64,000 bases of DNA, taken from contig CM056389.1 in the NCBI GenBank assembly GCA_029718625.1, positions 9,791,987 to 9,855,986 on the forward strand, given 5' to 3'. Within the stretch, counting starts at the first letter, position 1; each line of letters begins with the position of its first letter. Below are positions 16,402-35,571 of this stretch, one piece after another. The notes beneath the pieces are model-generated. The model saw nothing but the letters and a program-made list of their open reading frames with translations. It was not told the DNA's origin and searched no databases. Source of the stretch: Synaphobranchus kaupii (Eukaryota > Chordata > Actinopteri > Anguilliformes > Synaphobranchidae). A program made the position numbers and the translations under genes.

Positions 16402-18308
16402 ATGAAACTGTTGAACGGAAATGAGTCTGAGACCAAATTAATCTCCAAAAAGGTAAAAAGAAAAGAGAAAAAAAATGTAAAATATAGATTACTGTATATA
16501 TCTGTTTATGTGCGCATCAAGAAACCTGTAAGCGCAATAAACTCTCGTGTCAAAGGAATCACATGAGTGTAGTTTGATAAATTGGTGGTTGAGTTAATGA
16601 CAAAACTATTCTAATTTTTTGTCCCATATCTGTCCAGTGACAGTCCCTTTTGAGTGAGCTGTTTTATGTGATGTCTTGTTAATCTGCAAAGACAAGTGTC
16701 TATGATGTGTGAGAAGCAGAAACAGAATACATTGAAAATATTTGACGGCTGTATTCACAAATAACAAAGCTAATTTTGTACTATGTTTGTTTGTGCAGCT
16801 CCTCAAACCCCTGGTGGAGAAGCGTAGGAGGGAGAGAATGAACCGCAGTCTGGAGAGTCTGAGAGCACTGCTGCTGCAGCGGTCCCAGCACCAGGTGAGC
16901 ACCAGCGCCCCCTGTCTGCCTCTCAGTGCTACTGCCACTGTGTGCCCAAACTCTCAATATACACCTTTACCTGTTTACCAACATATACCTGCCAATAAAC
17001 AGCTTAACTGTCTCTCACAAACTATAGTGTATGTGTGTAGTAACCCTCTCTCTCTCAGTGTAGTGTATGTGTGTAGTAACCCTCTCTCTCCCAGTGTAGT
17101 GTATGTGTGTAGTAACCCTCTCTCTCCCAGTGTAGTGTATGTGTGTAGTAACCCTCTCTCTCCCAGTGTAGTGTATGTGTGTAGTAACCCTCTCTCTCCC
17201 AGTGTACTGTATGTGTGTAGTAACCCTCTCTCTCACAGTGTAGTGTATGTGTAGTAACCCTCTCCCAGTGTAGTGTATGTGTGTAGTAACCCTCTCTCTC
17301 CCAGTGTAGTGTATGTGTAGTAACCCTCTCCCAGTGTAGTGTATGTGTGTAGTAACCCTCTCTCTCCCAGTGTAGTGTATGTGTAGTAACCCTCTCCCAG
17401 TGTAGTGTATGTGTGTAGTAACCCTCTCTCTCCCAGTGTAGTGTATGTGTAGTAACCCTCTCTCTCCCAGTGTAGTGTATGTGTGTAGTAACCCTCTCTC
17501 TCCCAGTGTAGTGTATGTGTGTAGTAACCCCTCTCTCTCCCAGTGTAGTGTATGTGTAGTAACCCTCTCTCTCCCAGTGTAGTGTATGTGTGTAGTAACC
17601 CTCTCTCTCCCAGTGTAGTGTATGTGTGTACTAACCCTCTCTCTCCCAGTGTAGTGTATGTGTATAGTAACCCTCTCTCTCCCAGTGTAGTGTATGTGTG
17701 TACTAACCCTCTCTCTCCCAGTGTAGTGTATGTGTATAGTAACCCTCTCTCTCCCAGTGTAGTGTATGTGTGTAGTAACCCTCTCTCTCCCAGTGTAGTG
17801 TATGTGTGTAGTAACCCCTCTCTCTCTCTGGTAGGCGCTGGCGAGTGGTAGAGTGGAGAAAGCAGAGGTCCTGGAGCACACAGTCCTCTTCCTGCAGAGC
17901 GCTGGTCACAGAGGGGCAGCAGAAGGCAGGCAGCAGCAGGACTTCCAGGACGGGTTCTCCACCTGCCTGCAGCGAGCTGCGCGCTTCCTGCGGGACGACA
18001 GGGAGGGGCGGCGGGTGGAGGCAGCGCTGAGCGTCACCCTCTCCCGTCACCTGACACACCCTGGCCAGGTCACCAGAGCTCCCATCAGCCCCCACTCTCC
18101 CCACACTCAGCCCAAGGGACAGTGTGCCCAGCTGGGGAGTCAGAACTGGCACTGCAGCCTGCAGCATGGAGCCGCCCTCAGGAGTAACCCCTCCCATCAA
18201 CGCACTGCGCCCCTGGCACAGGGACACCCCAACCTTCCCCAGCGCCCCCAAAGAGAGGCTCTCACATCCCCCACAAACAGCCAGTCACTGTGGAGACCCT
18301 GGCCCTGA
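16402..18308 (+). CDS. her7: her7-like bHLH-Orange repressor, copy A (3 exons, 206 aa)
   Basis: Coding exons are 16402-16452 (MKLLNGNESETKLISKK), 16799-16894 and 17835-18308; all junctions are phase 0. Exon 2 gives the basic region and helix 1 ([15 protein letters not shown], with the Hes-type proline), and exon 3 the loop and helix 2 ([16 protein letters not shown]). An Orange-type segment follows ([16 protein letters not shown]), then a Pro/Ser-rich linker and a terminal WRPWP, which recruits Groucho/TLE. Such proteins bind CACGNG/E-box sites as dimers and repress clock genes, including their own. Length and the FSTCLQRAA block fit fish Her7; another Hes7-class name is possible. Exon 1 resembles that of inverted copy E rather than copies B-D. 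Intron 2 is 940 bp because of a large minisatellite. Confidence 0.85.
17025..17830. repeat. 36-bp minisatellite in her7-A intron 2, twenty-odd units
   Basis: The unit is CCCTCTCTCTCCCAGTG plus TAGTGTATGTGTGTAGTAA; some units are shortened to about 26-34 bp. Each full unit contains a splice-acceptor-like tract (CTCTCTCTCCCAG). The array stops just before the true exon 3 acceptor (CTCTCTCTGGTAG). A period of 36 keeps frames open, so long open frames here are artefacts. Confidence 0.95.
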
Positions 18309-18738
18309 AACTGGCCTCTAGATGGACTCTGCCTTCTGATTGGACTGGACAATGAAGTAAAGATTATGTCATTCAGGAATTCTGCTGTATATTGTGATAT
18401 AATGTACAAGCTCTTATTATGATATTATAATGTTTAGCTCTTATTGCCAAACAGGCGCTGGTTTGTACACTGGTGCTGTGTTGAAGCATCATTACACAGT
18501 ATAGCTCACATGATTGTGTGTGATTCACATCAGAGACTGCATCTTAATATTTCAAGAGGAAAATTATTATATAACTGAAATGTATTTTCTAAAAGAAGAT
18601 TTTGAAGTCTTTGTAAATAATTTTTAAATATATTGTGTGTATATGAATTTATATATTTTTTTATTCTTTAATTTCAATATTTATTATATGATTTAATCCT
18701 CTAAATGATCCATTGCACTTCTATATTTTGGAGGTTAA

Positions 18739-18744
18739 AATAAA
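18739..18744 (+). terminator. her7-A polyadenylation signal
   Basis: AATAAA about 430 bp after the stop codon. The same position is conserved in copies B and C. Confidence 0.6.
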
Positions 18745-19000
18745 AAACTGTCAAAATATTCTTGGCTTCTTTCACTTCATTTGAATATGGGAGAAAATCA
18801 TACTGTTTATAAGAACACGCAGCATATTACGTCATTGTGCTCGCCCGCTATTTGAACAGCACCTTTGACAACTCAGTTTGAGATTAACGGTCCCCATTGT
18901 CTGTTGTCAATCGCGATCTCGTGCCGCATAAATGAGAGGAAAAGGTGTGGAACGGGCACGCGCCAGGTCTCCACACTTCCAGCGGTCGCGCCTGTTTGAT

Positions 19001-19041
19001 GTCGCAGACAAGAGGATCAAAGGGCCTGACTGCCATGGGAA
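19001..19041 (+). promoter_or_regulatory. her7 distal module between A and B (ATCAAAG + CATGGGAA)
   Basis: GTCGCAGACA, ATCAAAG at 19016-19022 and CATGGGAA at 19034-19041 are separated by 11 bp. The sites match TCF/LEF and RBPJ (YRTGDGAA) consensus. The module lies 3' of copy A and 1.9 kb 5' of copy B, and could serve either. Confidence 0.6.
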
Positions 19042-19129
19042 CGAGGTGGTCACAACGACGGAAGTAAGACTTTTCAATTCATTTGATGTGTTTATTTTGA
19101 CTTACGGACACATTTGCCTGTGTTAAAGC

Positions 19130-20010
19130 CCCCCTAGCCGTCCAAAGCATGTATGGAACATATTCATCTAAATACCAAATAATCCTACACAATGCAGGCC
19201 ATCAATTTGTCAGTCACTGAAGAGTCTGACAACACGCTAAAATGCACAGTTAATTTCCGTTGTGTTTTATTTACTATAAAAATTAAGCAGACTTACTTAG
19301 GCCTATCTGCTAATAACTTCTTTTCTTCATAACATCCACAGAGTACATAATATGTTCATCATTAAATCAACTTTAACAAGCTATATTTTTCTCTGGTAAG
19401 TGTTTGATCCCTGTTTGGCGAAAAAAACTTTGTTAGAGATCAGTTCACACTGGACATTTTATCCGTTTTATTTTATTTACTATATTAGACAGAATTACTT
19501 ATCTGCTTACAACTCCAAAATAATAACCAATTTTTCTTCATAATATCCACAGAGTACCTAATATGTTCATAATTAAATCAACTTTAACAAACTATATTTT
19601 TCTCTGGTAAGTGTAGGCAACTTTTGATCCTTGTTTGAGGAAAAAAAACTGTTAGAGATCATTTCACACTGGACATTTTGTCCTATGGTCTCCTTTAAAT
19701 GTATTATTGTTTTGAATGATTTTGGCTATTTTCTCAACCAAACCGTTTATTTAATTTGCAGGGGCAAATTTTGGAATATGCTTTGCAGGCAGATCTAATA
19801 TTTCCAAGTTCCAACTCCAACAGAAAAACACGCAATTCATAAGCATAAAGTAGAGTTGCATCAATGAAGTTCTTAAATATTAGAAATATATTTGTAAAGG
19901 TCATCGCGGGGAAAAAAAACATTACACGAATCAGAATTCAATCTGAAAATATTTTCCTTTAGTTCGTAATAACCTCGTAAATATCCGTCACCAGATGCAA
20001 ACATATGCGC
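19130..20010. other. Unit B upstream spacer
   Basis: AT-rich sequence conserved in units C and D but without coding capacity. It contains an internal partial duplication: 19385-19440 resembles 19590-19650. Confidence 0.5.
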
Positions 20011-20027
20011 ACTGCTCTGCGTGTGAG

Positions 20028-20272
20028 CGTGGGACCTGATACGGAATTGTGTTCCCGTTGTTCGTGGGAAAGGAGCAATTAATTCATTCTTTCTGCGTTT
20101 TAACGTTTCGTGACCTGTTAGAATTAACTCGCAGTTGGTGATAGAAAGAGTTCAAAGGAATTATTTGGCAGCCGCTGTTCTCACAGTCCCAGGCACGCGC
20201 GCCTTACCATGGGAACTGATTCTCTCAGGTGTAGGCGACAGCAACACGCGTTCAGTGTTCACACCTATAAAG
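20028..20272 (+). promoter_or_regulatory. her7-B proximal enhancer: RBPJ-like, T-box-like and TATA-like sites
   Basis: CGTGGGAA lies at 20063-20070, TTCTCACA (RBPJ, reverse) at 20178-20185 and CATGGGAA at 20208-20215. AGGTGT at 20227-20232 and TTCACACCT at 20258-20266 match T-box half-sites. The second overlaps TATAAAG (20266-20272). CACGCG motifs suit Hes/Her binding. This combination is what Notch- and Tbx6-driven clock genes use; binding itself is inferred. Confidence 0.55.
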
Positions 20273-20762
20273 CATCGGCCCGCTCCCTCGTATTCGCAAC
20301 ATGTTATTAGGCGACACGAAATTAGTTTCTCTTCAATTAATTCAACTCTTATGGCCAACGGAACGAAATGTGCCGTTAATGGCTGCATTGGGGACCTTTT
20401 TATCTGAAGCTGTTTTATTGAACAGAGAGCGTGTCAATTAATCAGAAAGAGACAGACTGGACCTTTCCTGATGGATGAAGGATAAACGTCTGTTTTGAAT
20501 GTTCTGTCATAAAAATAAAGTTTATTCAAAAACGTTTTTAGAATGCTACAATCCCTTTTCGTCATGTAACTAAACTCCACCTCGCTGTCACATTCCTTCG
20601 TTAGATTGCTCAGCAGTCTTACTGTGTGACAATTCTTCGTTTCCCATAGGCGCGTGTGGCTGGTTTTATTACCGCAATTTCAAGCGTTTATTGGCGCCAT
20701 TAGAAGTGAATTCGGGGTTCGTTCTTGAAGGCGGGGCGCGAGGCTGCTGGGTGGAGCCACAT

Positions 20763-20771
20763 AGAATAAAG
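20763..20771 (+). promoter_or_regulatory. her7-B core promoter candidate (AGAATAAAG)
   Basis: A TATA-like AGAATAAAG about 125 bp upstream of the start codon follows a GC-rich block (GGCGGGGCGCGAGG). In copies C and D the motif is split by an extra TGTCTCA. Confidence 0.35.
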
Positions 20772-20896
20772 ACACGCTAAATAGACACTCCTCAAACTCC
20801 ACAGAGAGACACAAGATCTAAACAGCGACGGTCGGGATAACAGTGGATTCGATACTGAACTCTTTTCCTCTTGCTGATCAATCAAAAGACGCAGTG

Positions 20897-22113
20897 ATGG
20901 AGGTGATAACGACGCCCAGTGGGGCCAACCTGAAGCTGGACTTAAAAACAACAAGAAAGGTAAAAACATTCAGAATAAAAGCGGATATTTGTTGAATGCA
21001 GAAATTATTTATCTTAGCTGACACAAATTTCGAATGGCACTTTCATATACCTGAAGTGATTAGAGAAAGACATTAATGTTGCCTTTGTCCCATATCTGTC
21101 CAGTGACAGTCCTTTTTGAGTGAGCTGTTTTGTGTGATGTCATGTTTATCTTCAAAGACAAGTGTCTGTAATGTGTGAGAAGCAGAAACAGAATACATAG
21201 AAAATGTTTGACGGCTTTAGGCACAAATACCAAAGCTAATTCTGTACTATGTTTGTTTGTGCAGCTCCTCAAACCCCTGGTGGAGAAGCGTAGGAGGGAG
21301 AGAATGAACCGCAGTCTGGAGAGTCTGAGAGCACTGCTGCTGCAGCGATCCCAGCACCAGGTGAGCACCAGCGCCCCCTGTCTGCCTCTCAGTGCTACTG
21401 CCACTGTGTGCCCAAACTCTCAATATACACCTTTACCTGTTTACCACCATACACCTGCCAATAAACAGCTTAACTGTCTCTCACACACTATAGTGTATGT
21501 GTGTAGTAACCCTCTCTCTCCCAGTGTAGTGTATGTGTGTAGTAACCCTCTCTCTCGCAGTGTAGTGTATGTGTGTAGTAACTCTCTCTCTCCCAGTGTA
21601 GTGTATGTGTGTAGTAACCCCTCTTTCTCTCTGGTAGGCGCTGGCGAGTGGTAGAGTGGAGAAAGCAGAGGTCCTGGAGCACACAGTCCTCTTCCTGCAG
21701 AGCGCTGGTCACAGAGGGGCAGCAGAAGGCAGGCAGCAGCAGGACTTCCAGGACGGATTCTCCACCTGCCTGCAGCGAGCTGCGTGCTTCCTGCGGGACG
21801 ACCGGGACGGGCGGCGGGTGGAGGCAGCGCTGAGCATCACCCTCTCCCCGTCCCCTGACACACCCTGGCCAGGTCACCAGAGCTCCCATCAGCCCCCACT
21901 CTCCCCACACTCAGCCCAAGGGACAGTGTGCCCAGCTGGGGAGTCAGAACTGGCACTGCAGCCTGCAGCATGGAGCCGCCGTCAGGAGTAACCCCCTCCC
22001 ACCAACGCACAGCGCCCCTGGCACAGAGACACCCCAACCTTCCCCAGCGCCCCCAAAGAGAGGCTCTCACATCCCCCACAAACAGCCAGTCACTGTGGAG
22101 ACCCTGGCCCTGA
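20897..22113 (+). pseudogene. her7: her7-like copy B: frameshifted, no in-frame WRPW
   Basis: Coding exons are 20897-20959 (MEVITTPSGANLKLDLKTTRK), 21265-21360 and 21638 onward. The bHLH and Orange-like segments match the other copies. In exon 3 an extra C in the run at 21846-21849 shifts the frame after [12 protein letters not shown], and translation stops at 21989-21991 after about 170 residues. A second extra C near 22000-22004 shifts again, so WRPWP (ending 22113) is present but out of frame. The product would keep DNA-binding and dimerisation parts without the Groucho-binding tail. Because both changes are +1 in C runs, sequencing error must be excluded before calling this a pseudogene. 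Confidence 0.7.
21490..21628. repeat. 36-bp minisatellite in her7-B intron 2, about 4 units
   Basis: Same unit as in copy A, with only about four copies. Intron 2 is 277 bp. Confidence 0.9.
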
Positions 22114-22542
22114 AACTGGCCTCTAGATGGACTCTGCCTTCTGATTGGACAATGAAGTAAAGATTATGTCATTCAGGAATTCTGCTGTATATTGTGATAT
22201 AATGTACAAGCTCTTATTATGATATTATAATGTTTAGCTCTTATTGCCAAACAGGCACTGGTCTGCACACTGGTGCTGTGTTGAAGCATCATTACACAGT
22301 ATAGCTCACATGATCGTGTGTGATTCACATCAGAGACTGCATCTTAATATTTCAAGAGGAAAATTATTATATAACTGAAATGTATTTTTAAAAAAGAAAA
22401 TTTTGAAGTCTTTGTAAATAATTTAAAAATGTGTTGTGTATATATGAAATGATATATTTTTATATTCTTTAATTTCAATATTTATTATATTATTTAAGCC
22501 TCTAAATGATCCATTGCACTTCTTCTATATTTTGGAGGTTAA

Positions 22543-22548
22543 AATAAA
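22543..22548 (+). terminator. her7-B polyadenylation signal
   Basis: AATAAA at the position equivalent to that of copy A. Confidence 0.55.
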
Positions 22549-22805
22549 AAAACTTTCTAAATATTCTTTGCTTCTTTCACTTCATTTGAATATGGGAGAA
22601 AATCATACTGTTTAAAAGAACATGCAGCATATTACGTCATTGTGCTCGCCTGCTATTTGAACAGCACCTTTGACAACTCAGTTTGAGATTAACGGTCCCC
22701 ATTGTCTGTTGTCAATCGTGATCTCGTGCCGCATAAATTAGAGGAAAAGGTGTGGAACGGGCACGCGCCAGGTCTCCTCACTTCCAGCGGTCGCGCCTGT
22801 TTGAT

Positions 22806-22853
22806 GTCGCAGACAAGAGGATCAAAGGGCCTGACTGCCATGGCCCATGGGAA
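22806..22853 (+). promoter_or_regulatory. her7 distal module between B and C, spacing altered
   Basis: ATCAAAG at 22821-22827 and CATGGGAA at 22846-22853. A 7-bp extra segment (TGGCCCA-like duplication) widens the gap from 11 to 18 bp. Confidence 0.55.
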
Positions 22854-23433
22854 ACGAGGTGGTCACAACGACGGAAGTGAGAGGTTTCAATTCGTCTGAC
22901 GTGTTTATTTTGACTTATGGACACATTTGCCCCCCCTAGCCATCCAAAGCATGTATGGAACATATTCATCTAAATGCCAAATAATCCTACACAATGCAGG
23001 CCATCTATTTGTCAGTCACCGAAGAGTCTGACGACACGCTAAAATACACAGTTAATTTCCGTTTTATATTATTTACTATAAAAATGAGGCAGAATTACGT
23101 ATGTGATAATAACTCCAAATATAATAACCCATTTTTCTTCATAATATCCACAGAGTACCCTAATATGTTCATGAGTAAATCAACTATAACAAAGCATATT
23201 TTTCTCAGGTAAGTGTAGGCTACTTTTGATCCCTCTTTCGGAAAAAAAAAACTCTGTTAGAGATCAGTTCACACTGGACATTTTGTCCGATGGTCTCCTT
23301 TAAATTGATTATTGTTTTGAATGATTTTGGATATTTTCTACAGCAAACCGTTTATTTATTTTGCAGTGCAAATTTGGGAATATGTTATGCAAGCAGATCG
23401 AATATTTCCAAGTTCCAACTCCAACAAAAAAAC

Positions 23434-24166
23434 GAGCCTGATCTCATGAAATTCGGCAATATGTACCGATTGTTAGTGTCTCAAAAAACGGTACCTGTTT
23501 CCGAATTTTGCACAAGCGCCCCCTGAGCCTGTACTGGGAACTACTGACTAAAGGCTGTGATAGGCCGAAAACATCACGTGTGAGGGTAGTAGTATATGAC
23601 GTCACGCGTCCCACTGCTTTTCTTGGCAAGACTTTTTTGTCAAAAAATTTTTCTTGGCAAAAATTGTTTTTCTTTTTTTTTCGTGATTCCCGTACCCCAC
23701 CCACAACCCCTAAACATAACCTCACAGGAGTTCACGTAACTCGGGCTCATGCCCGAACTGTTAAGATAGTGTCCCTTTTTGCTACCATATTGTTACCAAC
23801 AATTTTGAAATAAAATAAATTATAAAAAATAAAAAAATTATTAAAAAAATAAAATTAAAATAAAAAAATGTCCCAGGGTCCCGCCCAACCCCTAAACATA
23901 ACCTCATAGGAGTTCACGTAACTCGGGCTCATGGCCGAACTGTTAAGATTTAAAGAATCTATATTTGCACAACTATATTTTTCTATCACAAGCTTCTCTC
24001 GCATTATATATCTTTCACGAAATCTCCTTACAGTCTACAACTGAGCATTAGTCAGTAGTTCCCAGTACAGGCTCAGGGGGCGCTTGTGCAAAATTCGGTA
24101 ACAGGTACCGTTTTTTGAGACACTAACAATCGGTACATATTGCCGAATTCACATGAGATCAGGTTG
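23434..24166. mobile_element. 733-bp MITE inserted only in unit C, 8-bp target duplication
   Basis: Inverted termini of about 110 bp begin GAGCCTGATCTCATG on the left and end CATGAGATCAGGTTG on the right. Inner parts (GGCAATATGTACCGATTGTT; CCCCCTGAGCCTGTACTGGG) are mirrored. AAAAAAAC flanks both sides. Units B and D have the uninterrupted site. No transposase is present; the 8-bp duplication suggests hAT. Confidence 0.85.
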
Positions 24167-24367
24167 AAAAAAACACTCAATTAATAAGCATAAAGTAGAG
24201 TTGCATCAATTAAGTTCTTAAATATTAGAAATATACTTGTAAAGGTCGTCGTGGAAAAAAGAAACATTACACAAATCAGAATTCAATCTGAAAATATTTT
24301 TCTTTAAGTCGTAATAACCGCGTAAATATCCGTCACCAGGTCCAGACATATGCGCACTGCTCTGCGT

Positions 24368-24617
24368 GTGAGCGTGGGACCTGATACAGAATTCTGTTCC
24401 CGTTGTTCGTGGGAAAGGAGCAATTCATTCATTCTTCCTGCGTTTTAACGTTTTGTTACCTGTTAGAATTAACTCGCAGTCGGTGACAGGAAGAGTTCAA
24501 AGGAGTTGTTTTGCATGCGCAATTTTCACAGTCCCAGGCACGCGCGCCTTACCATGGGAACTGATTCTCTCAGGTGGAGGTGAGAGCAACACGCGTTCAG
24601 TGTTCACACCTGTAAAG
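24368..24617 (+). promoter_or_regulatory. her7-C proximal enhancer, TATA-like site lost
   Basis: CGTGGGAA lies at 24408-24415, CATGGGAA at 24553-24560 and TTCACACCT at 24603-24611. The TATAAAG found in B and D is TGTAAAG here, and the AGGTGT site is AGGTGG. Confidence 0.5.
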
Positions 24618-24793
24618 CATCGGCCCGCTCCTTCGTATTCGCAAAGTGTTATTAAGCAAAACGAAATTAGTTTCTCTTTTTAATTCTCAATTAATTCTTC
24701 TCTTATGGCCAACTAGACGAATTGTGCCGTAAATTGCTGCATAGAGACCTTTTTAGCTGAAGTTGTTTTATTCAACAGAGAGCGCGTCAAGTA

Positions 24794-24979
24794 GAGTATT
24801 CTGGGGGCAATTGTATCAGGGGGCAATTGCAACACCATAAAATGGCACCAATCTGAAACAAGCTAGAGCTGAGATTCTATCCAGCAAGCTAGCTAGTTGC
24901 ATGTGTTCAGGGTTGGGGGCAATTGTAACAAAAAATTGTATTACAATTGACCCCTGTTACAATTGCCCCCAGAATACTC
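24794..24979. mobile_element. 186-bp MITE inserted only in unit C at TA
   Basis: Inverted termini GAGTATTCTGGGGGCAATTG / CAATTGCCCCCAGAATACTC are flanked by TA on both sides, as for Tc1/mariner-type elements. Units B and D lack it. Confidence 0.85.
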
Positions 24980-25450
24980 TAATCAGAAAGGCACATACTG
25001 GTCCCTCCCTGGTGGATGAAGGATAAATGCCTGTTTTGAATGTTCTGTCAAAAAAAAAAAAAGTTTATTCAAATACGTTTTAGTAGGTTACAACAAGCCC
25101 ATTTCTTCATGTAACTAAACTCCACCTCGCTGTCACATTCCTTCGTTAGATTGCACACAGTAGGCTCATGTGTAACAATTCTTCGTTTCCCAGAGGCGCG
25201 TGTGGCTGGTTTTATTACCGCAATATGAAGCGTGTATTGGCGCCATTAGAAGTGAATTCGGGGTTCGTTCTTGAAGGCGGGGCGCGAGGCTGCTGGGTGG
25301 AGCCACATAGAATAATGTCTCATAAAGACACGCTAAATAGACACTCCTCAAAGGCCACAGCGACACAAGATCTAAACACCGACGGTCGGGATAGCAGTGG
25401 ATCCGATACTGAACTCTGTTCCTCTTGCTGATCAATCAAAAGACGCAGTG

Positions 25451-26592
25451 ATGGAGGTGATAACGAAGCCCAGTGGAGCCAACCTGAACCTGGACTTAAA
25501 AACAACAAGAAAGGTAAAAACATTCAGAATAAAAGTGAATATTTGTTGAATGCAGAAATGATTTATCTTAGCTGACACAAATTTCGAATGTGACTTTCAT
25601 ATACCTGAACTGATTAGAGAAAGACATTAATGTTGCCTTTGTCCCATATCTGTCCAGTGACAGTCCTTTTTGAGTGAGCTGTTTTATGTGATGTCTTGTT
25701 AATCTGCAAAGACAAGTGTCTATGATGTGTGAGAAGCAGAAACAGAATACATTGAAAATGTTTCACGGCTTTAGTCACAAATAACAAAGCTAATTTTGTA
25801 CTATGTTTGTTTGTGCAGCTCCTCAAACCCCTGGTGGAGAAGCGTAGGAGGGAGAGAATGAACCGCAGTCTGGAGAGTCTGAGAGCACTGCTGCTGCAGC
25901 GATCCCAGCACCAGGTGAGCACCAGCGCCCCCTGTCTGCCTCTCAGTGCTACTGCCACTGTGTGCCCAAACTCTCAATATACACCTTTACCTGTTTACCA
26001 ACATATACCTGCCAATAAACAGCTTAACTGTCTCTCACAAACTATAGTGTATGTGTGTAGTAACTCTCTCTCTCCCAGTGTAGTGTATGTGTGTAGTAAC
26101 CCTCTCTCTCTCTGGTAGGCGCTGGCGAGTGGTAGAGTGGAGAAAGCAGAGGTCCTGGAGCACACAGTCCTCTTCCTGCAGAGCGCTGGTCACAGAGGGG
26201 CAGCAGAAGGCAGGCAGCAGCAGGACTTCCAGGACGGGTTCTCCACCTGCCTGCAGCGAGCTGCGTGCTTCCTGCGGGACGACAGGGACGGGCGGCGGGT
26301 GGAGGCAGCGCTGAGCGTCACCCTCTCCCGTCACCTGACACACCCTGGCCAGGTCACCAGAGCTCCCATCAGCCCCCACTCTCCCCACACTCAGCCCAAG
26401 GGACAGTGTGCCCAGCTGGGGAGTCAGAACTGGCACTGCAGCCTGCAGCATGGAGCCGCCGTCAGGAGTAACCCCTCCCACCAACGCACTGCGCCCCTGG
26501 CACAGGGACACCCCAACCTTCCCCAGCGCCCCCAAAGAGAGGCTCTCACATCCCCCACAAACAGCCAGTCACTGTGGAGACCCTGGCCCTGA
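25451..26592 (+). CDS. her7: her7-like bHLH-Orange repressor, copy C (3 exons, 210 aa)
   Basis: Coding exons are 25451-25513 (MEVITKPSGANLNLDLKTTRK), 25819-25914 and 26119-26592; all junctions are phase 0 and the frame is open to WRPWP. Exon 2 gives [15 protein letters not shown] and helix 1. Exon 3 gives helix 2, the [16 protein letters not shown] Orange-like segment and the tail. Intron 2 is the shortest of the five (204 bp, two minisatellite units). Two MITEs sit in its upstream region and its far-upstream TATAAAG is mutated, so expression may differ from D. The coding sequence looks functional. Confidence 0.85.
26045..26112. repeat. 36-bp minisatellite in her7-C intron 2, about 2 units
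   Basis: Two units only; the smallest array among the copies. Confidence 0.85.
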
Positions 26593-27018
26593 AACTGGCC
26601 TCTAGATGGACTCTGCCTTCTGATTGGACTGGACAATGAAGTAAAGATTGTGTCATTTAGGAATTGTGCTGTATATTGTGATATAATGTACAAGCTCTTA
26701 TTATGATATTATAATGTTTAGCTCTTATTGCCAAACAGGCGCTGGTCTGTACACTGGTGCTGTGTTGAAGCATCATTACACAGTATAGCTCACATGATCG
26801 TATGTGATTCACATCAGAGACTGCATTTCAAGAGGAAAATTATTATATAACTGAAATGTATTTTAAAAAAAGAAAACTTTGAAGTCTTTGTAAATAATTT
26901 AAAAATGTGTTGTGTATATATGAAGTGATATATTTTTATATTATTTAATTTCAATATTTATTATATGATTTAAGCCTCTAAATGATCCATTGCACTTCTT
27001 CTATATTTTGGAGGTTAA

Positions 27019-27024
27019 AATAAA
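27019..27024 (+). terminator. her7-C polyadenylation signal
   Basis: AATAAA at the position equivalent to that of copy A. Confidence 0.55.
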
Positions 27025-27280
27025 AAACTGTCAAAATATTCTTTGCTTCTTTCACTTCATTTGAATATGGGAGAAAATCATACTGTTTAAAAGAACATGC
27101 AGCATATTACGTCATTGTGCTCGCCCGCTATTTGAACAGTACCTTTGACAACTCAGTTTGAGATTAACGGTCCCCATTGTCTGTTGTCAATCGCGATCTC
27201 GTGCCGCATAAATTAGAGGAAAAGGTGTGGAACGGGCACGCGCCAGGTCTCCTCACTTCCAGCGGTCGCGCCTGTTTGAT

Positions 27281-27321
27281 GTCGCAGACAAGAGGATCAA
27301 AGGGCCTGACTGCCATGGGAA
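27281..27321 (+). promoter_or_regulatory. her7 distal module between C and D (11-bp spacing)
   Basis: ATCAAAG at 27296-27302 and CATGGGAA at 27314-27321, with the same spacing as the modules before copies A and B. Confidence 0.6.
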
Positions 27322-28084
27322 CGAGGTGGTCACAACGATGGAAGTGAGAGGTTTCAATTCGTCTGACGTGTTTATTTTGACTTATGGACACATTTGCCCC
27401 CCTAGCCGTCCAAAGCATGTATGGAACATATTCATCTAAATACCAAATAATCCTACACAATGCAGGCCATCTATTTGTCAGTCAACGAAGAGTCTGACAA
27501 CACGCTAAAATGCACAGTTAATTTCCGTTTTATTTTATTTACTATAAAAATGAGGCAGAATTACTTATCTGCTTACAACTCCAATATAATAACCAATTTT
27601 TCTTCATAATATCCACAGAGTACCTAATGTGTTCATAATTAAATTAACTTTGACAAACGATATTTTTCTCTGGTAAGTGTAGGCTACTTTTGATCCCTGT
27701 TTGGGGAAAAAAACTCTGTTAGAGATCATTTCACACTAGACATTTTGTCCGATGGTCTCCTGTAAATGTATTATTATTTTGAATGATTTTGGATATTTTC
27801 TCAACCAAACCGTCTATTTATTTTGCAATGCAAATTTGGGAATATGCTCTGCAGGCAGATCGAATATTTACAAGTTCCAACTCCAACAAAAAAACACTCA
27901 ATTAATAAGCATAAAGTAGAGTTGCATCAATTAAGTTCTTAAATATTAGAAATATACTTGTAAAGGTCGTCGTGGAAAAAAGAAACATTACACAAATCAG
28001 AATTCAATCTGAAAATATTTTTCTTTAAGTCGTAATAACCGCGTAAATATCCGTCACCAGGTCCAGACATATGCGCACTGCTCT

Positions 28085-28338
28085 GCGTGTGAGCGTGGGA
28101 CCTGATACGGAATTCTGTTCCCGTTGTTCGTGGGAAAGGAACAATTAATTCATTCTTCTTGCGTTTTAACGTTTTGTTACCTGTTAGAATTAACTCGCAG
28201 TCGGTGATAGGAAGAGTTCAAAGGAGTTGTTTGGCATGCGCAATTTTCACAATCCCAGGCACGCGCGCCTTACCATGTGAACTGATTCTCTCAGGTGTAG
28301 GCGACAGCAACACGCGTTCAGTGTTCACACCTATAAAG
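28085..28338 (+). promoter_or_regulatory. her7-D proximal enhancer
   Basis: CGTGGGAA lies at 28129-28136 and CATGTGAA (still YRTGDGAA) at 28274-28281. AGGTGT at 28293-28298 and TTCACACCT at 28324-28332 overlap or adjoin TATAAAG (28332-28338). Confidence 0.55.
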
Positions 28339-28949
28339 CATCGGCCCGCTCCCTCGTATTTGCAACGTGTTATTAGGCGACACGAAATTAGTTTCTCTTC
28401 AATTAATTCAACTGTTATGGCCAACGGAACGAAGTGTGCCATTAATGCCTGCATGGGATCCTTCTTATCTGAAGCTGTTTTATTCAACAGAGAGCGCGAA
28501 AAAGTAATCAGAAAGGGACATACTGGGCCCTCCCTATTGGATGAAGGATAAACGTCTGTTTTGAATGTTCTGTCAAAATAATGAAGTTTATTCAAAAACG
28601 TTTTAGAAGGCTACAACAAGCCCATTTCGTTAACTAAACTCCACCTCGCTGTCACATTTCTTCGTTAGATTGCTCAGTAGGCTTACTGTGTGACAATTCT
28701 TCGTTTCCCATAGGCGCGTGTGGCTGGTTTTATTACCGCAATATGAAGCGTTTATTGGCCCCATTAGAAGTGAATTCTGGGTTCGTTCTTGAAGGCGGGG
28801 CGCGAGGCTGCTGGGTGGAGCCACATAGAATAATGTCTCATGAAGACACGCTAAATAGACACTCCTCAAACACCACAGCGACGGTCGTGATAGCAGTGGA
28901 TCCGATACTGAACTCTGTTCCTTTTGCTGATCAATCAAAAGACGCAGTG

Positions 28950-30245
28950 ATGGAGGTGATAACGAAGCCCAGTGGAGCCAACCTGAACATGGACTTAAAA
29001 ACAACAAGAAAGGTAAAAACATTCAGTATAAGAGTGGATATTTGTTGAATGCAGAAATTACTTAGCTTAGCTGTCAATACTTTCTAATGTTACCATCATA
29101 GTCCTGAAGTTGTTAAAGGAAGACATTACTGTTGCCTTTGTCCCATATCTGTCCAGTGACTATGCTTTTTGAGCAATTGTGTGTCATGTCAAGTCAATCT
29201 TCAAAGACAGTTGTCCTTTATATGTGATACAAACAGAAACGGCAAATGAACAGAATGCATAGAGTATGTTTGACGGCTTTATTCACAAATACCAAAGCTA
29301 ATTTTGTACTATGTTTGTTTGTGCAGCTCCTCAAACCCCTGGTGGAGAAGCGTAGGAGGGAGAGAATGAACCGCAGTCTGGAGAGTCTGAGAGCACTGCT
29401 GCTGCAGCGATCCCAGCACCAGGTGAGCACCATCGCCCCCTGTCTGCCTCTCAGTGCTACTGCCACTGTGTGCCCAAACTCTCAATATACACCTTTACCT
29501 GTTTACCAACATATACCTGCCAAAATACAGATTAACTGTCTCTCACACATTATAGTGTATGTGTGTACTAACCCTCTCTCTCCCAGTGTTGTGTATGTGT
29601 GTAGTAACCCTCTCTCTCCCAGTGTAGTGTATGTGTGTAGTAACCCTCTCTCTCCCAGTGTAGTGTATGTGTGTAGTAACCCTCTCTCTCCCAGTGTAGT
29701 GTATGTGTGTAGTAACCCTCTCTCTCCCAGTGTAGTGTATGTGTGTAGTAACCCCTCTCTCTCTCTGGTAGGCGCTGGCGAGTGGTAGAGTGGAGAAAGC
29801 AGAGGTCCTGGAGCACACAGTCCTCTTCCTGCAGAGCGCTGGTCACAGAGGGGCAGCAGAAGGCAGGCAGCAGCAGGACTTCCAGGACGGGTTCTCCACC
29901 TGCCTGCAGCGAGCTGCGCGCTTCCTGCGGGATGACAGGGAGGGGCGGCGGGTGGAGGCAGCGCTGAGCGTCACCCTCTCCCGTCACCTGACACACCCTG
30001 GCCAGGTCACCAGAGCTCCCATCAGCCCCCACTCTCCCCACACTCAGCCCAAGGGACAGTGTGCCCAGCTGGGGAGTCAGAACTGGCACTGCAGCCTGCA
30101 GCATGGAGCCGCCGTCAGGAGTAACTCCTCCCACCAACGCACAGCGCCCCTGGCACAGAGACACCCCAACCTTCCCCAGCGCCCCCAAAGAGAGGCTCTC
30201 ACATCCCCCACAAACAGCCAGTCACTGTGGAGACCCTGGCCCTGA
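28950..30245 (+). CDS. her7: her7-like bHLH-Orange repressor, copy D (3 exons, 210 aa)
   Basis: Coding exons are 28950-29012 (MEVITKPSGANLNMDLKTTRK), 29327-29422 and 29772-30245, with phase 0 junctions and an open frame to WRPWP. bHLH, Orange-like segment ([16 protein letters not shown]) and tail match copy A. Intron 1 has diverged somewhat from B and C. Intron 2 is 349 bp with about six minisatellite units. The 3' UTR loses similarity to the other copies at about 30430, so I cannot point to the shared AATAAA. The upstream enhancer is complete; of copies B-D this one looks best preserved. Confidence 0.85.
29553..29765. repeat. 36-bp minisatellite in her7-D intron 2, about 6 units
   Basis: Same unit as in copy A; about six copies. 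Confidence 0.9.
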
Positions 30246-30769
30246 AACTGGCCTCTAGATGGACTCTGCCTTCTGATTGGACTGGACAATGAAGTAAAGA
30301 TGGTGTCATTCAGGAATTGTGCTGTATATTGTGATATAATGTACAAGCTCTTATTATGATATTATAATGTTTAGCTCTTATTGCCAAACAGGCGCTGGTC
30401 TGTACACTGGTGCTGTGTTGAAGCATCATGATTAAGTCACTCAAGATTTTTCACGATTCATCTTAAAAACTACATGTAAATATTTAATGAGAAAAATAGT
30501 TATATCTAAAAAAATGTTAAGTTGTAAGTAATTAATCTAATATATTGTGTATTTATAAAATAATAGCATTTAAATATTCTTTATTTTGTCCTATTTATTA
30601 TCTGCATATATTATATTACATGTCTTTTCTTACATAGGAATACATTTCGATGTTAAAAAAAAAATCTCTAATTTTTGTCAAATTGTTTTGTTGCTTTTGT
30701 AACGTATATCACAAGCTAAAACTGTTAAAATTAGAATATATATTTAAAAAGAACATGCAGCATTTTCTC

Positions 30770-31150
30770 GTGTTTATTCTCACTCTCTCACTCACATCAG
30801 TTTACGGCTCAGAAATCCCTTATTTCTGTTTTCAATCGTGATCCTCGTGCTCATGAATGCAGGGAAATGTTCATTCCAATCGCTTATTTTCACTCTATGC
30901 ATCCTTTCCTCGCGTCCTTTCCTCGCTCCTTAGCTCCGTCCAATGGAGGATGCGAGGAAAGGATGCAAGGATCAGATACTTTTTAAGAGCTTCCCAGTTT
31001 AACATTCACAGATCCCCTCTCTCGCTCTGGTGGGCTTTCCCTAAATTAGAGGAAAAATGTTCGTAAAAGCCACGCGCCTCACCCTCTCACGTCGAGCGGT
31101 CTCACCTGTTTGATGTTGGTGACGAGAGGTGGCGAACGCCATGGGAACAA
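30770..31150 (+). promoter_or_regulatory. Diverged orphan copy of the her7 distal module
   Basis: CCTGTTTGATGTTGGTGACGAGAGG and the following CGCCATGGGAACAAGG match the other modules in part. The RBPJ-like CATGGGAA is at 31140-31147, but ATCAAAG is not preserved. No her7 exon follows on the + strand. Confidence 0.5.
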
Positions 31151-31159
31151 GGTCAGCGC

Positions 31160-32225
31160 GTGGTTTCTCTTTACTTCCTTGAATATAAAAGGGTATTTTA
31201 CATTCTGAGCCAGGCTGAAGCATACGGCCATACAACAACAAAAAATGTCGTAGCCTTCTGTTTTACTTTCAATCGGCACAATATGCAATGCATTTTTGGA
31301 ATTATCTTTTAAAACACGTTGTTACTTCATAGCAATCGAAAATGAATTTGAACAAATTTAGTTCAAAGTTCGTCATTTACTTTTTGCTCAACAGTTTAGC
31401 CTATAGGCTAATGAGCCGGAATGGAATTGAAATGTATTCTTTTGCTCTGTCGTTTCTTTCGGTCCATTTGAAACTTTGATTATGCTATACATATTTTTCC
31501 ACGGTAGGAACTATTTACATGCCTATTGAATGAAGGGCAGGTAGTCGGCTTATTGCCTTCTGGGTGGACTGTGATCGGTGGGACATCCTGTTCGAGCCAC
31601 TTCTCTGTGGCCGTGGGAAAGCCTAAATTACGGCCTTCCCTGTATCTGGGCTTATTTAGCTGGCTAAATTAGCCCGTGCGTGATGACAGGGGGATCCGCA
31701 GCTTTGGTCTAGCGGACGCCGGTCTCTCACCTTGAGGTTTTATGGCTCCCAGCGTCATTTGCTGTAGCTTTCATATGCAATGGGTGTACTCGCTGTGCAA
31801 CGTCGAATTTAAAGCTATATCCCCTGACCCATTTGCTTCTTAATAATACATATTCAATTTTCATATTGCACCCACGATGCCATCTAACTTTGTGTTCTAA
31901 GAATATGTGTGAATATGTGTTTACTATCGACTGTGACCCTGATGTCATAGCATCCCCACTCGCTGCATAACAGACTTCATGCAGGCATTTGTTTATGTAG
32001 GCTAAGTTGTCCTGGAGAAGAGCGTCCGCTAAAAACCTTCCGGAGAATGTCGTGGAAGTAAGCCGTCAACAAAGGAATCCTCCTCTGCGCGTAATCTGTG
32101 CGTAATATCCCCAAACCCCAGTGCACTGTTGTCTGCGAAGTGCGAATTTTCTGGAGGAAACATAAAGCTTGCCGTTGAGAAGAGATTCTTTTTAGAAGCT
32201 GTAATAGCTGTAAACTAAGCGGGTT
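31160..32225. other. Inversion-junction region; no gene
   Basis: Between the + strand array and the - strand copy E lies non-coding DNA. A tail-like GTCCTGGAGAAGAGCGTCCG near 32010 and a tRNA-like TGTTCGAGCC near 31590 hint at an old SINE. Confidence 0.4.
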
Positions 32226-32233
32226 GCGCGCGA

Positions 32234-32310
32234 CTTTGATCTCTACAACTGCGACTGCGACATCAAACAGGCGCGGAAGTGAAGAGTCATGACACGTGCC
32301 GTCCTCACAC
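32234..32310 (-). promoter_or_regulatory. Inverted copy of the her7 distal module, 3' of copy E
   Basis: CTTTGAT (32234-32240, reverse ATCAAAG) and GCGACATCAAACAGGCGCG match the reverse complement of the other modules. The RBPJ-like half is not preserved. It follows copy E in the same relation that modules follow A, B and C. Confidence 0.55.
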
Positions 32311-32471
32311 CTTCTCCGACACAGCGCCCAAGGCTCTAAAATCTTTCAGAAACTAATACCAAAAGTTTGGGAGGAACAACAATCATTTTCTAAGGAGCAT
32401 GAGCTGTTAGAATTCGAAAATACAGTTCTATCAGTGCATACACAAAACACAACAAATATTGAGGAAGAACT

Positions 32472-32477
32472 TTTATT
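32472..32477 (-). terminator. her7-E polyadenylation signal candidate
   Basis: AATAAA on the - strand about 520 bp past the stop codon. Confidence 0.45.
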
Positions 32478-32999
32478 TTTTTATACAAAATATATAAAAT
32501 TGTAGCAGGGAAAAGGATGAGAAATTGTTCAAATAAATAGTAGTGTAAAGAGAGGGTATAAATATTGCTACAAAAAGGCATTTTTTTAAAGTGACTAAAG
32601 CTTAAGTTCATTGTATACACATTTGTTATAAATAAGCTGTCTATTTGAATGTAGTTCAGAAATACAAAATGGTTATATTACACAGTGAGAAATGTCTTCT
32701 TTGAAGACTGCAGACTACATCAATGCCAATAATGTTTAGCAGTTTGTGGTGTCTCTGGATTGATTTATCATTGCACATTATAATACAGGAGGAAGCAATC
32801 TTCATGCCAGTACAGGTTTTAAAAACCCATCAGTCAGTGAGGAAGTTTTAGAACATCTCATCCATTGTGGCAGTTTTGGCCTGAACGGGGAGTGAGTGTT
32901 AAGGAGAGCGAATAGCAGGTCATAATTTATCTATTTACATAAGAATTTCTAATCAGTGTCCAGTCCAATCAGAAGGCAGAGTCCATCTAGAGGCCAGTT

Positions 33000-34513
33000 T
33001 CAGGGCCAGGGTCTCCACAGTGACTGGCTGTTTGTGGGGGATGTGAGAGCCTCTCTTTGGGGGCGCTGGGGAAGGTTGGGGTGTCCCTGTGCCAGGGGCG
33101 CAGTGCGTTGATGGGAGGGGTTACTCCTGAGGGCGGCTCCATGCTGCAGGCTGCAGTGCCAGTTCTGACTCCCCAGCTGGGCACACTGTCCCTTGGGCTG
33201 AGTGTGGGGAGAGTGGGGGCTGATGGGAGCTCTGGTGACCTGGCCAGGGTGTGTCAGGTGACGGGAGAGGGTGACGCTCAGCGCTGCCTCCACCCGCCGC
33301 CCCTCCCTGTCGTCCCGCAGGAAGCGCGCAGCTCGCTGCAGGCAGGTGGAGAACCCGTCCTGGAAGTCCTGCTGCTGCCTGCCTTCTGCTGCCCCTCTGT
33401 GACCAGCGCTCTGCAGGAAGAGGACTGTGTGCTCCAGGACTTCTGCTTTCTCCACTCTACCACTCGCCAGTGCCTACCAGAGAGAGAGAGAGGGGTTACT
33501 ACACACATACACTACACTGGGAGAGAGAGGGTTACTACACACATACACTACACTGGGAGAGAGAGGGTTACTACACACATACACTACACTGGGAGAGAGA
33601 GGGGTTACCACACACATACACTACACTGGGAGAGAGAGGGTTACTACACACATACACTACACTGGGAGAGAGAGGGTTACTACACACATACACTATAGTG
33701 TGTGAGAGACAGTGAAGCTGTATATGGGCGGCAGTGTAGTATAATGGTTAAGGAACTGGCCTTGTAACCAAAAGATTGCAGGTTCGATTCCCAGGTAGGA
33801 CACTGCCGTTGTACCCTTGAGCAAGGTACTTAACCTGAATTGCTTCAGTATATATCCAGCTGTATAAATGGATAATATGTAAAAACATGATTAAAAAAAA
33901 GTTGTGTAAGTCGCTGTGGATAAGAGCGTCTGGTAAATGCCTATAATGTAATTTATATATTGGCAGGTGTATGTTGGTAGACAGGTAAAGGTGTATATTG
34001 AGAGATTGGGCATACAGTGGCAGTAGCACTGAGAGGCAGACAGGGGGCGCTGGTGCTCACCTGGTGCTGGGACCGCTGCAGCAGCAGTGTTCTCAGACTC
34101 TCCAGACTGCGGTTCATTCTCTCCCTCCGACGCTTCTCCACCTGGGGTTTCAGGAGCTGCACGCGCACACAAACACAGAGCAGGTGATTAGGAGATATAG
34201 ATTACTTTTTCTTCATGTGCCTTTACAATCCCTCCGAAACAACCAGCCGCAACCACTGTAATGTTCGCCTTTTTTAACGAAGCCTCATGATATTTTCCAT
34301 GCAAACTGGCATTGACGTTCAATTAAAGCCATTTAAACATGACCGGAATAATCCAATATATTTCACAGGCTGCATAAAATAATTGCATTAAAGGAATCGG
34401 GTGATTCCCATTCCGCGTATATATCTTTGAATTCATCGCAAAAAAGTAACTATTATTCTTACCTTTCTGGCATCTTTCGCGTTTCCAGTTTCACTTCCAT
34501 CAAGCAACTTCAT
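33000..34513 (-). CDS. her7: her7-like bHLH-Orange repressor, inverted copy E (3 exons, 206 aa)
   Basis: On the - strand the coding exons are 34463-34513 ([17 protein letters not shown]), 34061-34156 and 33000-33473; all junctions are phase 0. It is divergent from her1, which is the usual her1/her7 arrangement in fish, so this is the best candidate for the ancestral her7. Exon 2 differs from the other copies at LLKPQVEK (Q for L) and LRTLLL (T for A). The exon 3 product from VEKAEV to WRPWP is identical to that of copy A, although the 3' UTRs diverge within about 50 bp of the stop. Intron 2 (587 bp) has about six minisatellite units and a tRNA-SINE. Confidence 0.88.
33483..33700. repeat. 36-bp minisatellite in her7-E intron 2, about 6 units
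   Basis: The reverse complement of the unit seen in copies A-D, in the same place relative to exon 3. Confidence 0.9.
33727..33952 (+). mobile_element. tRNA-derived SINE in her7-E intron 2
   Basis: A tRNA-like head carries an A box (TAATGGTTAAGGAACTGG) and a B box (GGTTCGATTCC, 33781-33791). It is followed by a body ending GTCGCTGTGGATAAGAGCG and TAAATGCC, a tail common in fish SINEs. Copies A-D lack it. Confidence 0.85.
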
Positions 34514-34670
34514 TTTTCTAATCCTTTTCTTGTGGGTAAAACAGAAGAGCCGGCAGTCCAGTCTGGTCTGGTAATCGGCTGTTGTTGTGGTCACGAGACT
34601 GTATCCTTGAGGTCTTCTCTGATAACGCTCGTTAAGTGTGTCTGAAATAAACCGCCCTCGCGGTCGCTTC

Positions 34671-34677
34671 TTTTAAA
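34671..34677 (-). promoter_or_regulatory. her7-E TATA-like box
   Basis: TTTAAAA on the - strand about 160 bp upstream of the copy E start codon. A GTGTGGCTGG block just beyond it also occurs upstream of copies B-D. Confidence 0.55.
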
Positions 34678-34689
34678 GCAGCAAGGCAC

Positions 34690-35570
34690 AGCGTGTGGCT
34701 GGCCACTCCCACGCGCCTGCCCCCAATCGCGTATACGTTGGCTATAGGGAAACCTTTTACTTATTTACAAAGTCTCGTTATGAACAGTAATGAAACAAAT
34801 CAATAAAATGCAAACTGCAAAAAAAAATATTTTCCTTAAATTAATTCCTGGGTTGGAGAAAAATCTGAAAGAGCGTCAAATAGATACTGGGAGGAGTAAA
34901 ATGAAACTAGATAACACAGAATAAATATAAATGGAGCTAAATATAAATATTTAATAGGCCTATTGAAACTTTTAGCCCACTGCTTTTCTCAAATATTGAT
35001 ATTTTAAGGACATATGTTTTCCGCAAGCTCGTTGCGGACTTTAAATGAAATTTACAGATCAAAAGGGACGTCACGGCGCGAGGCACAAGTTTTCTGGCAG
35101 GCATCTGACACGACTACTTCCGTAGGCACGTGGAGAGGAATGCAAAACACTTCTCCGTGACACCTCGGGTGTTAAGTGGGCTGTGGGCTGCGCGCAGAGG
35201 GCGCCCCGCTGGAGTTGGCACGTGGAGGCTTCCCAGCACGAGCCTGGCCACAGGTGTCAATACTAGCGAGGTTTGGGGTGGGCGCGCGTGTGCAGTGTCA
35301 TGACAAACCTCCCAGAACTCTTTTGATTGTAAATTTGGCGATTTTACGCGTGATCGTTTTATCTGCTTCACGGACACAAATTACGGCCTAACACAAAGTG
35401 TTGAAGTTTGTGGGTGCTTTTGAAAAGACTCATGTTTGTATAGATGTTATTTACGCTGTTGTTGGCTGTGTTGCTAGGTTTGCTGTTATTGGTATTTCTT
35501 ACTCCTGTCGTTCCAGGTGTATAGGTCAGATATAAACTCGTCATTTAATAATTTAACAAACACTTTAGAT
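34690..35570. promoter_or_regulatory. her1/her7 intergenic region, her7-proximal part
   Basis: Two CACGTG motifs (35127-35132, 35219-35224), which Her dimers can bind, and an AGGTGTC T-box-like half-site (35252-35258). No coding sequence. Function is inferred from motif content and position. Confidence 0.4.
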
Positions 35571-35571
35571 C

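What the first reader, a model, noticed from the sequence alone, without database searches (positions are those of the whole stretch)
16402..34513. Five-copy her7 array: four direct tandem copies plus one inverted copy facing her1
Seen: five genes with the same three-exon structure and a WRPWP tail (A-D on +, E on -), four with an intact frame. Known: fish typically carry one her7 next to her1, and clock period and noise depend on Her dose. Inference: copy E is ancestral and the array is a recent lineage-specific expansion of a core segmentation-clock gene. I do not know of a described five-copy her7 locus.
Basis: partly seen in the sequence, partly recalled or inferred. Interest (0 to 1): 0.9.

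Follow-up and report, generated by a model that had tools for sequence, protein, structure and literature searches.

The report
Five her7 clock genes, exons homogenised
A deep-sea eel carries five neighbouring copies of her7, a gene of the embryonic clock that cuts the body into segments; the copies keep different front ends but appear to have overwritten one another's rear exon, and signs of the same habit show up in other fishes.

Summary
Five her7 genes lie at 16402-34513: A-D on +, E on -. All have three exons; A, C, D and E are open to WRPWP, and B is frameshifted. E faces her1 (42161-44567). The source is Synaphobranchus kaupii.

Exon 1 of C and D is shared with Anguilla, Conger and Gymnothorax; A and E have other exon 1s. 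The 5' ends are therefore probably as old as crown eels. Yet exon 3 differs by only 2-8 of 474 bases among A, C, D and E, while E's flanks are mostly unalignable with the others. This is gene conversion; A is a hybrid; only the B-C-D tandem looks lineage-specific.

Many fishes have more than one her7: I found 29 acanthomorph species with two types, 22 on one contig. Their exon 1-2 tree sorts by type (100/99); the 5' half of exon 3 does not (16 type changes, p-AU 6.6e-08). Exon-3 conversion thus looks recurrent.

H-boxes are enriched around every copy. Raised Her7 dose is inferred; no expression data were available.

The parts
16402..18308 (+). her7 copy A: exons 16402-16452, 16799-16894, 17835-18308; 206 aa, WRPWP; hybrid gene (own promoter, exon 1 and 5' part of intron 1; body like C)
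20897..22113 (+). her7 copy B: exons 20897-20959, 21265-21360, 21638-22113; frameshifted in exon 3, product 170 aa without WRPWP
25451..26592 (+). her7 copy C: exons 25451-25513, 25819-25914, 26119-26592; 210 aa, WRPWP
28950..30245 (+). her7 copy D: exons 28950-29012, 29327-29422, 29772-30245; 210 aa, WRPWP; identical to P0001 / SKAU_G00322240
33000..34513 (-). her7 copy E: exons 34513-34463, 34156-34061, 33473-33000; 206 aa, WRPWP; head-to-head with her1
42161..44567 (+). her1: exons 42161-42199, 42572-42667, 43068-43167, 43858-44567; 314 aa ending WRPWS
32957..33473 (-). core of the conversion tract in E: exon 3 plus the first 43 bases after the stop (2 differences from A in 517), then abruptly unalignable
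17025..17826 (+). 36-bp minisatellite in intron 2 of A (22.8 units); the same array in B (21477-21629), C (26025-26108), D (29539-29763) and E (33484-33709)
33754..33948 (-). insertion in intron 2 of E only, looks like a tRNA-derived SINE (name recalled, strand not tested)
20063..20266 (+). proximal module upstream of B: RBPJ-type site 20063, H-boxes 20194 and 20245, T-box-type TCACACCT 20259; same order upstream of C (24408-24611) and D (28129-28332)
18929..19047 (+). conserved non-coding element 0.6-0.8 kb past the stop of A; others at 22734-22820 (B), 27209-27327 (C), 31042-31153 (D), 32317-32255 on - (E)
15146..15311 (+). orphan sixth copy of that element upstream of A, perhaps the trace of a lost copy
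34514..42160 (.). E-her1 intergenic region, head-to-head: 13 H-boxes (2.8 expected) and 6 RBPJ-type sites (0.45 expected)
23434..24166 (.). insertion with inverted ends (62 of 67 aligned columns), in the C unit only

Best explanation
The locus is an expanded her1-her7 clock locus. E is the ancestral her7, head-to-head with her1. Older duplications produced further her7 copies with different 5' ends (promoter plus exon 1). In the Synaphobranchus lineage one of these, the MEVI type, was duplicated in tandem to B, C and D, and an exchange in intron 1 made the hybrid A. The copies are kept alike from exon 2 through exon 3 by gene conversion, which also crosses the inversion to E; the intron-2 minisatellite may help start it. 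Shown: copies, frames, mosaic identity, H-box enrichment, and the same kind of exon-3 homogenisation in acanthomorph her7 pairs (protein level). Inferred: four or five separately driven promoters make nearly one Her7 body (second helix, Orange region, WRPW), so the array raises Her7 dose, and hence the Her7:Hes6 part of the feedback, while conversion keeps partner choice and repression uniform. The 5' ends can drift and so may change timing or strength of expression.
For: Five gene models, four open. Exon 3 differs by 2 (A-E), 4 (A-C), 6 (A-D, C-D, C-E) and 8 (D-E) of 474 bases; synonymous differences are 1-5 of about 118 sites (B left out for its frameshift). Yet A-E promoter, intron 1 and 3' flank beyond +43 are at or near chance identity and exon 1 is 57-60%, while intron 2 before the SINE, which is non-coding, matches at 104/112, so selection on protein alone does not explain it. 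Exon-3 protein is 118-125 of 146-156 identical to Anguilla or Conger but differs by at most 4 nonsynonymous changes among A, C, D and E. Exon 2-3 tree: A, C, D, E group together (88/99), apart from Anguilla, Conger and Gymnothorax, whereas exon 1 of C and D goes with those eels. A is hybrid: from the 3' half of intron 1 to the 3' flank 90-100% like C, upstream 38-54%. Parallel in 29 acanthomorph species (first run with 27). H-boxes enriched upstream of all five copies, not in three control stretches.
Against: No expression data and no reads. B is frameshifted, so at least one copy may be decaying. RBPJ-type and TCF-type sites are not enriched over shuffles in the stretches beside A-D. Regulatory sites of B, C and D are copies of one another, not independent. 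D has no A(A/T)TAAA signal in the 797 bases searched after its stop. Hairy_orange is below Pfam's cut-off. The age of the 5' types is not settled: no A/E-type exon 1 was seen in Anguilla, Conger or Gymnothorax (annotation only), and similarity of exon 1 to outgroups does not separate the types (Albula: E 10, A 7, C and D 9 of 17; Megalops: C and D 8, A 7, E 4). The S. kaupii clade in the exon 2-3 tree has 88/99, short of the program's mark for safe branches.
Confidence: 0.7

Rival explanations
1. Plain recent tandem expansion: E duplicated within this lineage, and all copies are alike because they are young.
For: Coding identity of 97.5-99.6% in exon 3 over all ten pairs; aligned blocks of the B, C and D units 87-93% alike.
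Against: Flanks, promoters, exon 1 and most of intron 1 of E and the upstream of A are unalignable with the rest, not expected if whole copies were as young as exon 3; exon 1 of C and D is shared with three other eel families.
Confidence: 0.12
2. Functional decay with incidental conversion: only E (perhaps with one more) drives the clock, and the array is tolerated, with conversion a by-product of nearby repeats.
For: B is frameshifted; zebrafish with one her1-her7 locus deleted show normal clock expression and no segmentation defect (PMC9250017, passages), so copy number may be nearly neutral; intron 2 carries a minisatellite in all five copies.
Against: A, C and D are open to WRPWP with GT-AG introns and keep H-boxes and the 3' element.
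Confidence: 0.3
3. Assembly artefact: haplotypes or repeats falsely expanded.
For: The region is rich in tandem repeats; no reads were seen; B's two extra C's lie in C-runs; the 3' halves of A, B and C are 90-100% alike.
Against: Aligned blocks of the B, C and D units differ by 7-13%, and C and E have private insertions; consecutive tags ANANG_G00166380 and ANANG_G00166390 suggest neighbouring her7 copies in Anguilla too.
Confidence: 0.06
4. Strong protein constraint rather than conversion keeps exon 3 alike.
For: Her7 is a core clock protein (PMC10859470, passages).
Against: Synonymous sites (1-5 changes of about 118) and intron 2 are about as conserved as amino acids, while exon 3 has diverged about 20% in protein between eel families; 43 bases of 3' UTR are identical between A and E, then identity stops.
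Confidence: 0.03

Closest known systems
Zebrafish her1-her7 locus (chromosome 5)
   Same: her7 head-to-head with her1; H-boxes CACG[T/C]G at the locus (PMC3404119 and PMC10859470, passages)
   Different: one her7 there (recalled), five here, four of them in direct orientation beyond an inverted one
Type I / type II her7 pair of acanthomorph fishes (from database annotation)
   Same: her7 genes on one contig with distinct exon 1-2 and within-species homogenised exon 3
   Different: two or three copies listed; types differ already in exon 2; the homogenised part is mainly the 5' half of exon 3, nearly the whole of it in Centroberyx and Myripristis
hes5/her4/her15 clusters and the several hes7 paralogs of frogs
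   Same: clusters of hes/her genes; [quoted passage not shown] laevis (PMC8320183, passages)
   Different: the clusters described there are of hes5 class; the passages seen do not describe a her7 array or gene conversion
Concerted evolution of tandem genes (recalled: rDNA, opsins, globins)
   Same: within-species homogenisation with sharp tract ends
   Different: here a segmentation-clock repressor, mostly its 3' part, while promoter and exon 1 stay distinct

Membership tests
her7 / Hes7-class repressor | bHLH domain with Pro in the basic region | tested here: met
   PF00010 above cut-off in E, B and C; LLKP[LQ][10 protein letters not shown] in A-E (meaning of the Pro recalled)
her7 / Hes7-class repressor | Orange domain | tested here: inconclusive
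   PF07527 at 16.3 and 13.5 bits against a cut-off of 25.3 in E and C; no match in B
her7 / Hes7-class repressor | C-terminal WRPW | tested here: met
   A, C, D and E end in WRPWP; B does not
her7 / Hes7-class repressor | closest relatives are her7, and linkage to her1 | tested here: met
   [quoted passage not shown] her1 at 42161-44567, best named hits 'hairy-related 1'
segmentation-clock gene | oscillating transcription in the presomitic mesoderm | not testable with these tools
   no expression data; clock-type sites only
concerted evolution by gene conversion | paralogs within a species closer than orthologs between species in the tract | tested here: met
   eel exon 2-3 tree (88/99); acanthomorph exon 3 5' half, own I-II 0.853 against same-type 0.799, 0 of 10000 permutations, p-AU 6.6e-08
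concerted evolution by gene conversion | tract ends beyond which divergence is high | tested here: met
   A-E: 43 identical bases after the stop, then 98/202 in +61..+300; intron 1 near chance, exon 1 57-60%
simple recent tandem array | copies equally alike in coding and flanking DNA | tested here: not met
   roughly so for B against C; not for A, D or E

The most novel reading that the evidence does not exclude
Across teleosts, neighbouring her7 genes show modular concerted evolution: the dimerisation/Orange (and at times WRPW) exon is repeatedly overwritten between neighbours, while promoter, N-terminus and the first part of the bHLH keep distinct ancient types. The clock repressor would thus exist as several separately tuned promoter and N-terminal modules feeding one shared effector, with the eel's five-gene array as the extreme.
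Probability: 0.6. Interest if true: 0.75.

Novelty: new variant of a known kind. Interest (0 to 1): 0.62.

Why it matters
her7 is a core gene of the somite clock, mostly studied as a single gene paired with her1. Natural loci with two to five copies give a ready experiment on how clock dose, promoter number and noise relate to period and vertebral number, in long-bodied eels in particular. Exon-3 conversion would also mean that phylogenies or dates taken from whole her7 proteins can mislead, and that probes or CRISPR guides placed in exon 3 may hit several genes at once.

Tried and rejected
Own-genome search for other bHLH genes: not completed, machine busy. Recent-expansion reading: rejected for A and E. 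Protein constraint as the cause of identity: rejected. Correspondence of the eel exon-1 types with acanthomorph types I and II: not supported by eye, since eel exon 2 reads LLKP[LQ][17 protein letters not shown], nearer type I, while type II reads [14 protein letters not shown]; no tree was made of this. Dose effects on period: not testable here. Papers: eight searches bear on her7 copy number, linkage or conversion and one on eels and the clock. No listed title or abstract start named a multi-copy her7 locus or her7 gene conversion; ('her7' with 'gene conversion') found 0 papers; two searches listed 12 of 183 and 12 of 68. The library is open-access only, so absence from print is not shown.

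Correction made on the way: the 110/130 identity of A-E at the start of intron 2, and the Fisher values that use 20/130 or 21/130, are distorted by an insertion in E; with it excluded the match is 104/112. Those Fisher values are not used. Acanthomorph pairs: picked by eye from the listed rows (120 of 396 and 120 of 342). Of 32 candidates (29, 3 added on re-checking the lists), 3 were dropped because both proteins were type II (Archocentrus, Monopterus, Maylandia); 29 kept. Extra copies P0057, P0068, P0072, P0073 and the Scomber pair (both type II) were not used.
Full report
Observation. All have three exons and GT-AG introns. A (206 aa), C (210), D (210) and E (206) run to WRPWP. B shifts frame in exon 3 and stops after 170 aa, keeping the bHLH but losing WRPWP; its two extra bases both lengthen C-runs, so sequencing error is possible. 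Copy D equals P0001 (SKAU_G00322240) letter for letter, and P0008 (SKAU_G00322220) carries the last 130 aa of B's product. The gene at 42161-44567 has as best hit SKAU_G00322260 (100% over 74% of the query; its annotated C-terminal part differs from my model, which ends WRPWS) and among the next named hits 'hairy-related 1' of Anguilla and Megalops: it is her1. Source species: Synaphobranchus kaupii, Anguilliformes.

Not five equal repeats. Compared piece by piece, B, C and D share promoter and exon 1 (93.7-98.4%), and B and C share everything downstream (93-100% windows). D leaves the others in intron 1 (80.8-83.2% in its last 180 bases) and again about 200 bases past the stop, but is 100% alike to B and C in exon 2 and 98.3-98.7% in exon 3. 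A has its own promoter and exon 1, becomes 92-97% like B and C in the last 180 bases of intron 1 and stays so into the 3' flank: a hybrid. E shares little alignable with the others outside the stretch from 18 bases before exon 2 to 43 bases after the stop, except the 3' element below; inside, exon 2 is 94.8-95.8%, intron 2 before its insertion 104/112, exon 3 97.5-99.6%. A and E are identical for the first 43 bases after the stop and then not alignable (98/202 in +61..+300).

Gene conversion rather than youth or constraint. Synonymous differences in exon 3 among A, C, D and E are 1-5 of about 118 sites (B left out for its frameshift), while E's neighbouring DNA has diverged beyond alignment. 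Constraint is not the reason: between eel families the exon-3 protein is about 80% identical (125/156 for Anguilla, 120/146 for Conger against A) and 80/130 for Gymnothorax, whose model looks truncated. In the exon 2-3 tree the four open S. kaupii copies group together (88/99) within an eel clade (99/99). Exon 1, by contrast, of C and D is 14-17 of 21 identical to Anguilla, Conger and Gymnothorax, and A and E match those at only 3-6 of 17 (B was not run, its exon 1 is 60/63 bases like C). So the 5' ends and the 3' exons have different histories. The simplest account is that at least two 5' types existed before crown eels, which PMC4981956 dates at about 99 Ma (passages), and that exon 3 has been overwritten since. 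Weak points: an A/E-type exon 1 was not seen in the other three eel families, where annotation and 90% clustering may hide it, and exon-1 similarity to Albula, Aldrovandia and Megalops does not cleanly side with one type. Exon 1 of A and E is itself only 60% alike in DNA, so they too look old. The intron-2 minisatellite (36-bp unit, in all five copies) lies inside the homogenised block and may promote exchange; this is inference.

A wider pattern. The hit lists (120 of 396 and 120 of 342 rows shown) contain acanthomorphs with two her7 types that differ in exon 1-2 (MKLLQDSEDAK...LKPQVER and MKLLQETEDAT...IKSQVEK). With 29 species: exon 1-2, own I-II identity 0.610, same type between species 0.825, one change of type on the tree, support 100/99. 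Exon 3, 5' half: own I-II 0.853, same type between species 0.799, own pair above that mean in 24 of 29, 0 of 10000 label permutations reach the observed mean; the tree needs 16 changes of type, a type II clade is rejected (p-AU 6.6e-08), and 7 of 29 own pairs are sisters, four of them with 98/84 or better (Centroberyx, Myripristis, Siniperca, Trachinotus), the other three (Lates, Seriola, Toxotes) with weak second support. Exon 3, 3' half: own I-II 0.493 against 0.630, so there conversion is the exception (Centroberyx 0.97, Myripristis 0.95). A first run with 27 species gave the same picture (16 changes, p-AU 0.00013, 22 of 27). Against: own-pair identity in the 5' half is not above the same-type mean in 5 of 29 (in the first run Chaetodon, Pampus argenteus, Pempheris, Eleginops and Cynoglossus), and exon 1-2 and the tail also show a slight own-pair excess (130 and 1 of 10000 permutations reach it).

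Regulation. The H-box, in practice CACG[T/C]G, was measured for Her1 homodimers and Her7:Hes6 heterodimers (PMC3404119, passages). H-boxes number 6, 4, 6, 4 and 3 in the stretches upstream of A, A-B, B-C, C-D and D-E, where dinucleotide shuffles give 0.6-1.0 (0, 0, 0, 1 and 4 of 100 shuffles reach the count), and 13 against 2.8 between E and her1 (0 of 100); three control stretches show 1, 0 and 2 against 0.9, 1.1 and 1.2. RBPJ-type sites are enriched only between E and her1 (6 against 0.45); one in each other stretch is within chance, and TCF-type sites are nowhere enriched. TCACACCT sits at the same place upstream of B, C and D (2, 10 and 2 of 100 shuffles) and once in D-E, but not upstream of A or in the first 2.5 kb upstream of E; the shorter ACACCT is enriched upstream of E (6 against 1.35) and also somewhat high in one control (8 against 4.3, 7 of 100). 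A second element, 70-120 bases in most alignments, lies 0.6-0.8 kb past the stop of every copy, E included and in the same orientation, and once more upstream of A. For A against E it is the only clearly alignable part of the 3' flank beyond +43 (a 77% window). All six copies hold an H-box at the same columns, CACGCG in five and CACGTG in that of E. I take it for a her7 enhancer; the orphan upstream of A may mark a lost copy. Both are inference.

How it works, most likely. her7 oscillates through negative feedback: Her1 homodimers and Her7:Hes6 heterodimers repress her1 and her7 (PMC3404119, passages). Copies A, C, D and E would each be switched on by clock inputs and repressed through their own H-boxes, all making nearly the same effector body. 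The expected effect is a higher Her7 dose. In zebrafish, removing one her1-her7 locus lowers RNA and correlated variability without segmentation defects (PMC9250017, passages), so extra copies may change burst size more than period. B, if expressed, would give a bHLH protein without WRPW and could act as a titrator (inference). None of this was tested.

Copy number beyond the locus. S. kaupii also has a second her7-like gene on another contig (P0023, SKAU_G00370500), grouping with Anguilla P0015 and Aldrovandia P0010 (100/100), so probably a genome-duplication partner kept in elopomorphs.

Verdict. The five-gene array is real in this assembly, was not met in the paper searches I could make, and is more interesting for its mosaic history than for its count. 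New variant of a known kind.

Noticed in passing
window 14005-14409 (+): Probably the last exon of a mitochondrial ribosomal S12-type protein gene (PF00164; name MRPS12 recalled), directly left of the array.
   Followed up: partly
window 49076-59090 (+): Bin3-type methyltransferase piece at 58634-59090 (PF06859), probably MEPCE (recalled), right of her1; the frame at 49076-49942 gave no Pfam match.
   Followed up: partly
window 11319-12360 (-): Tc1/Tc3-type transposase in two overlapping frames (PF13358, PF01498), so probably dead.
   Followed up: partly
window 59249-64000: 37-bp satellite of about 128 units running off the window's end; other long arrays at 3827-4594 (48 bp), 12704-13919 (58 bp), 51205-51862 (21 bp), 54453-56592 (55 bp).
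   Followed up: no
   Followed up: partly
P0023, P0015, P0010: Second her7-like gene on another contig in S. kaupii, Anguilla and Aldrovandia, ending MWRPWS: a probable genome-duplication partner kept in elopomorphs.
   Followed up: partly
window 24794-24982: Short insertion with inverted ends in the C unit only.
   Followed up: partly
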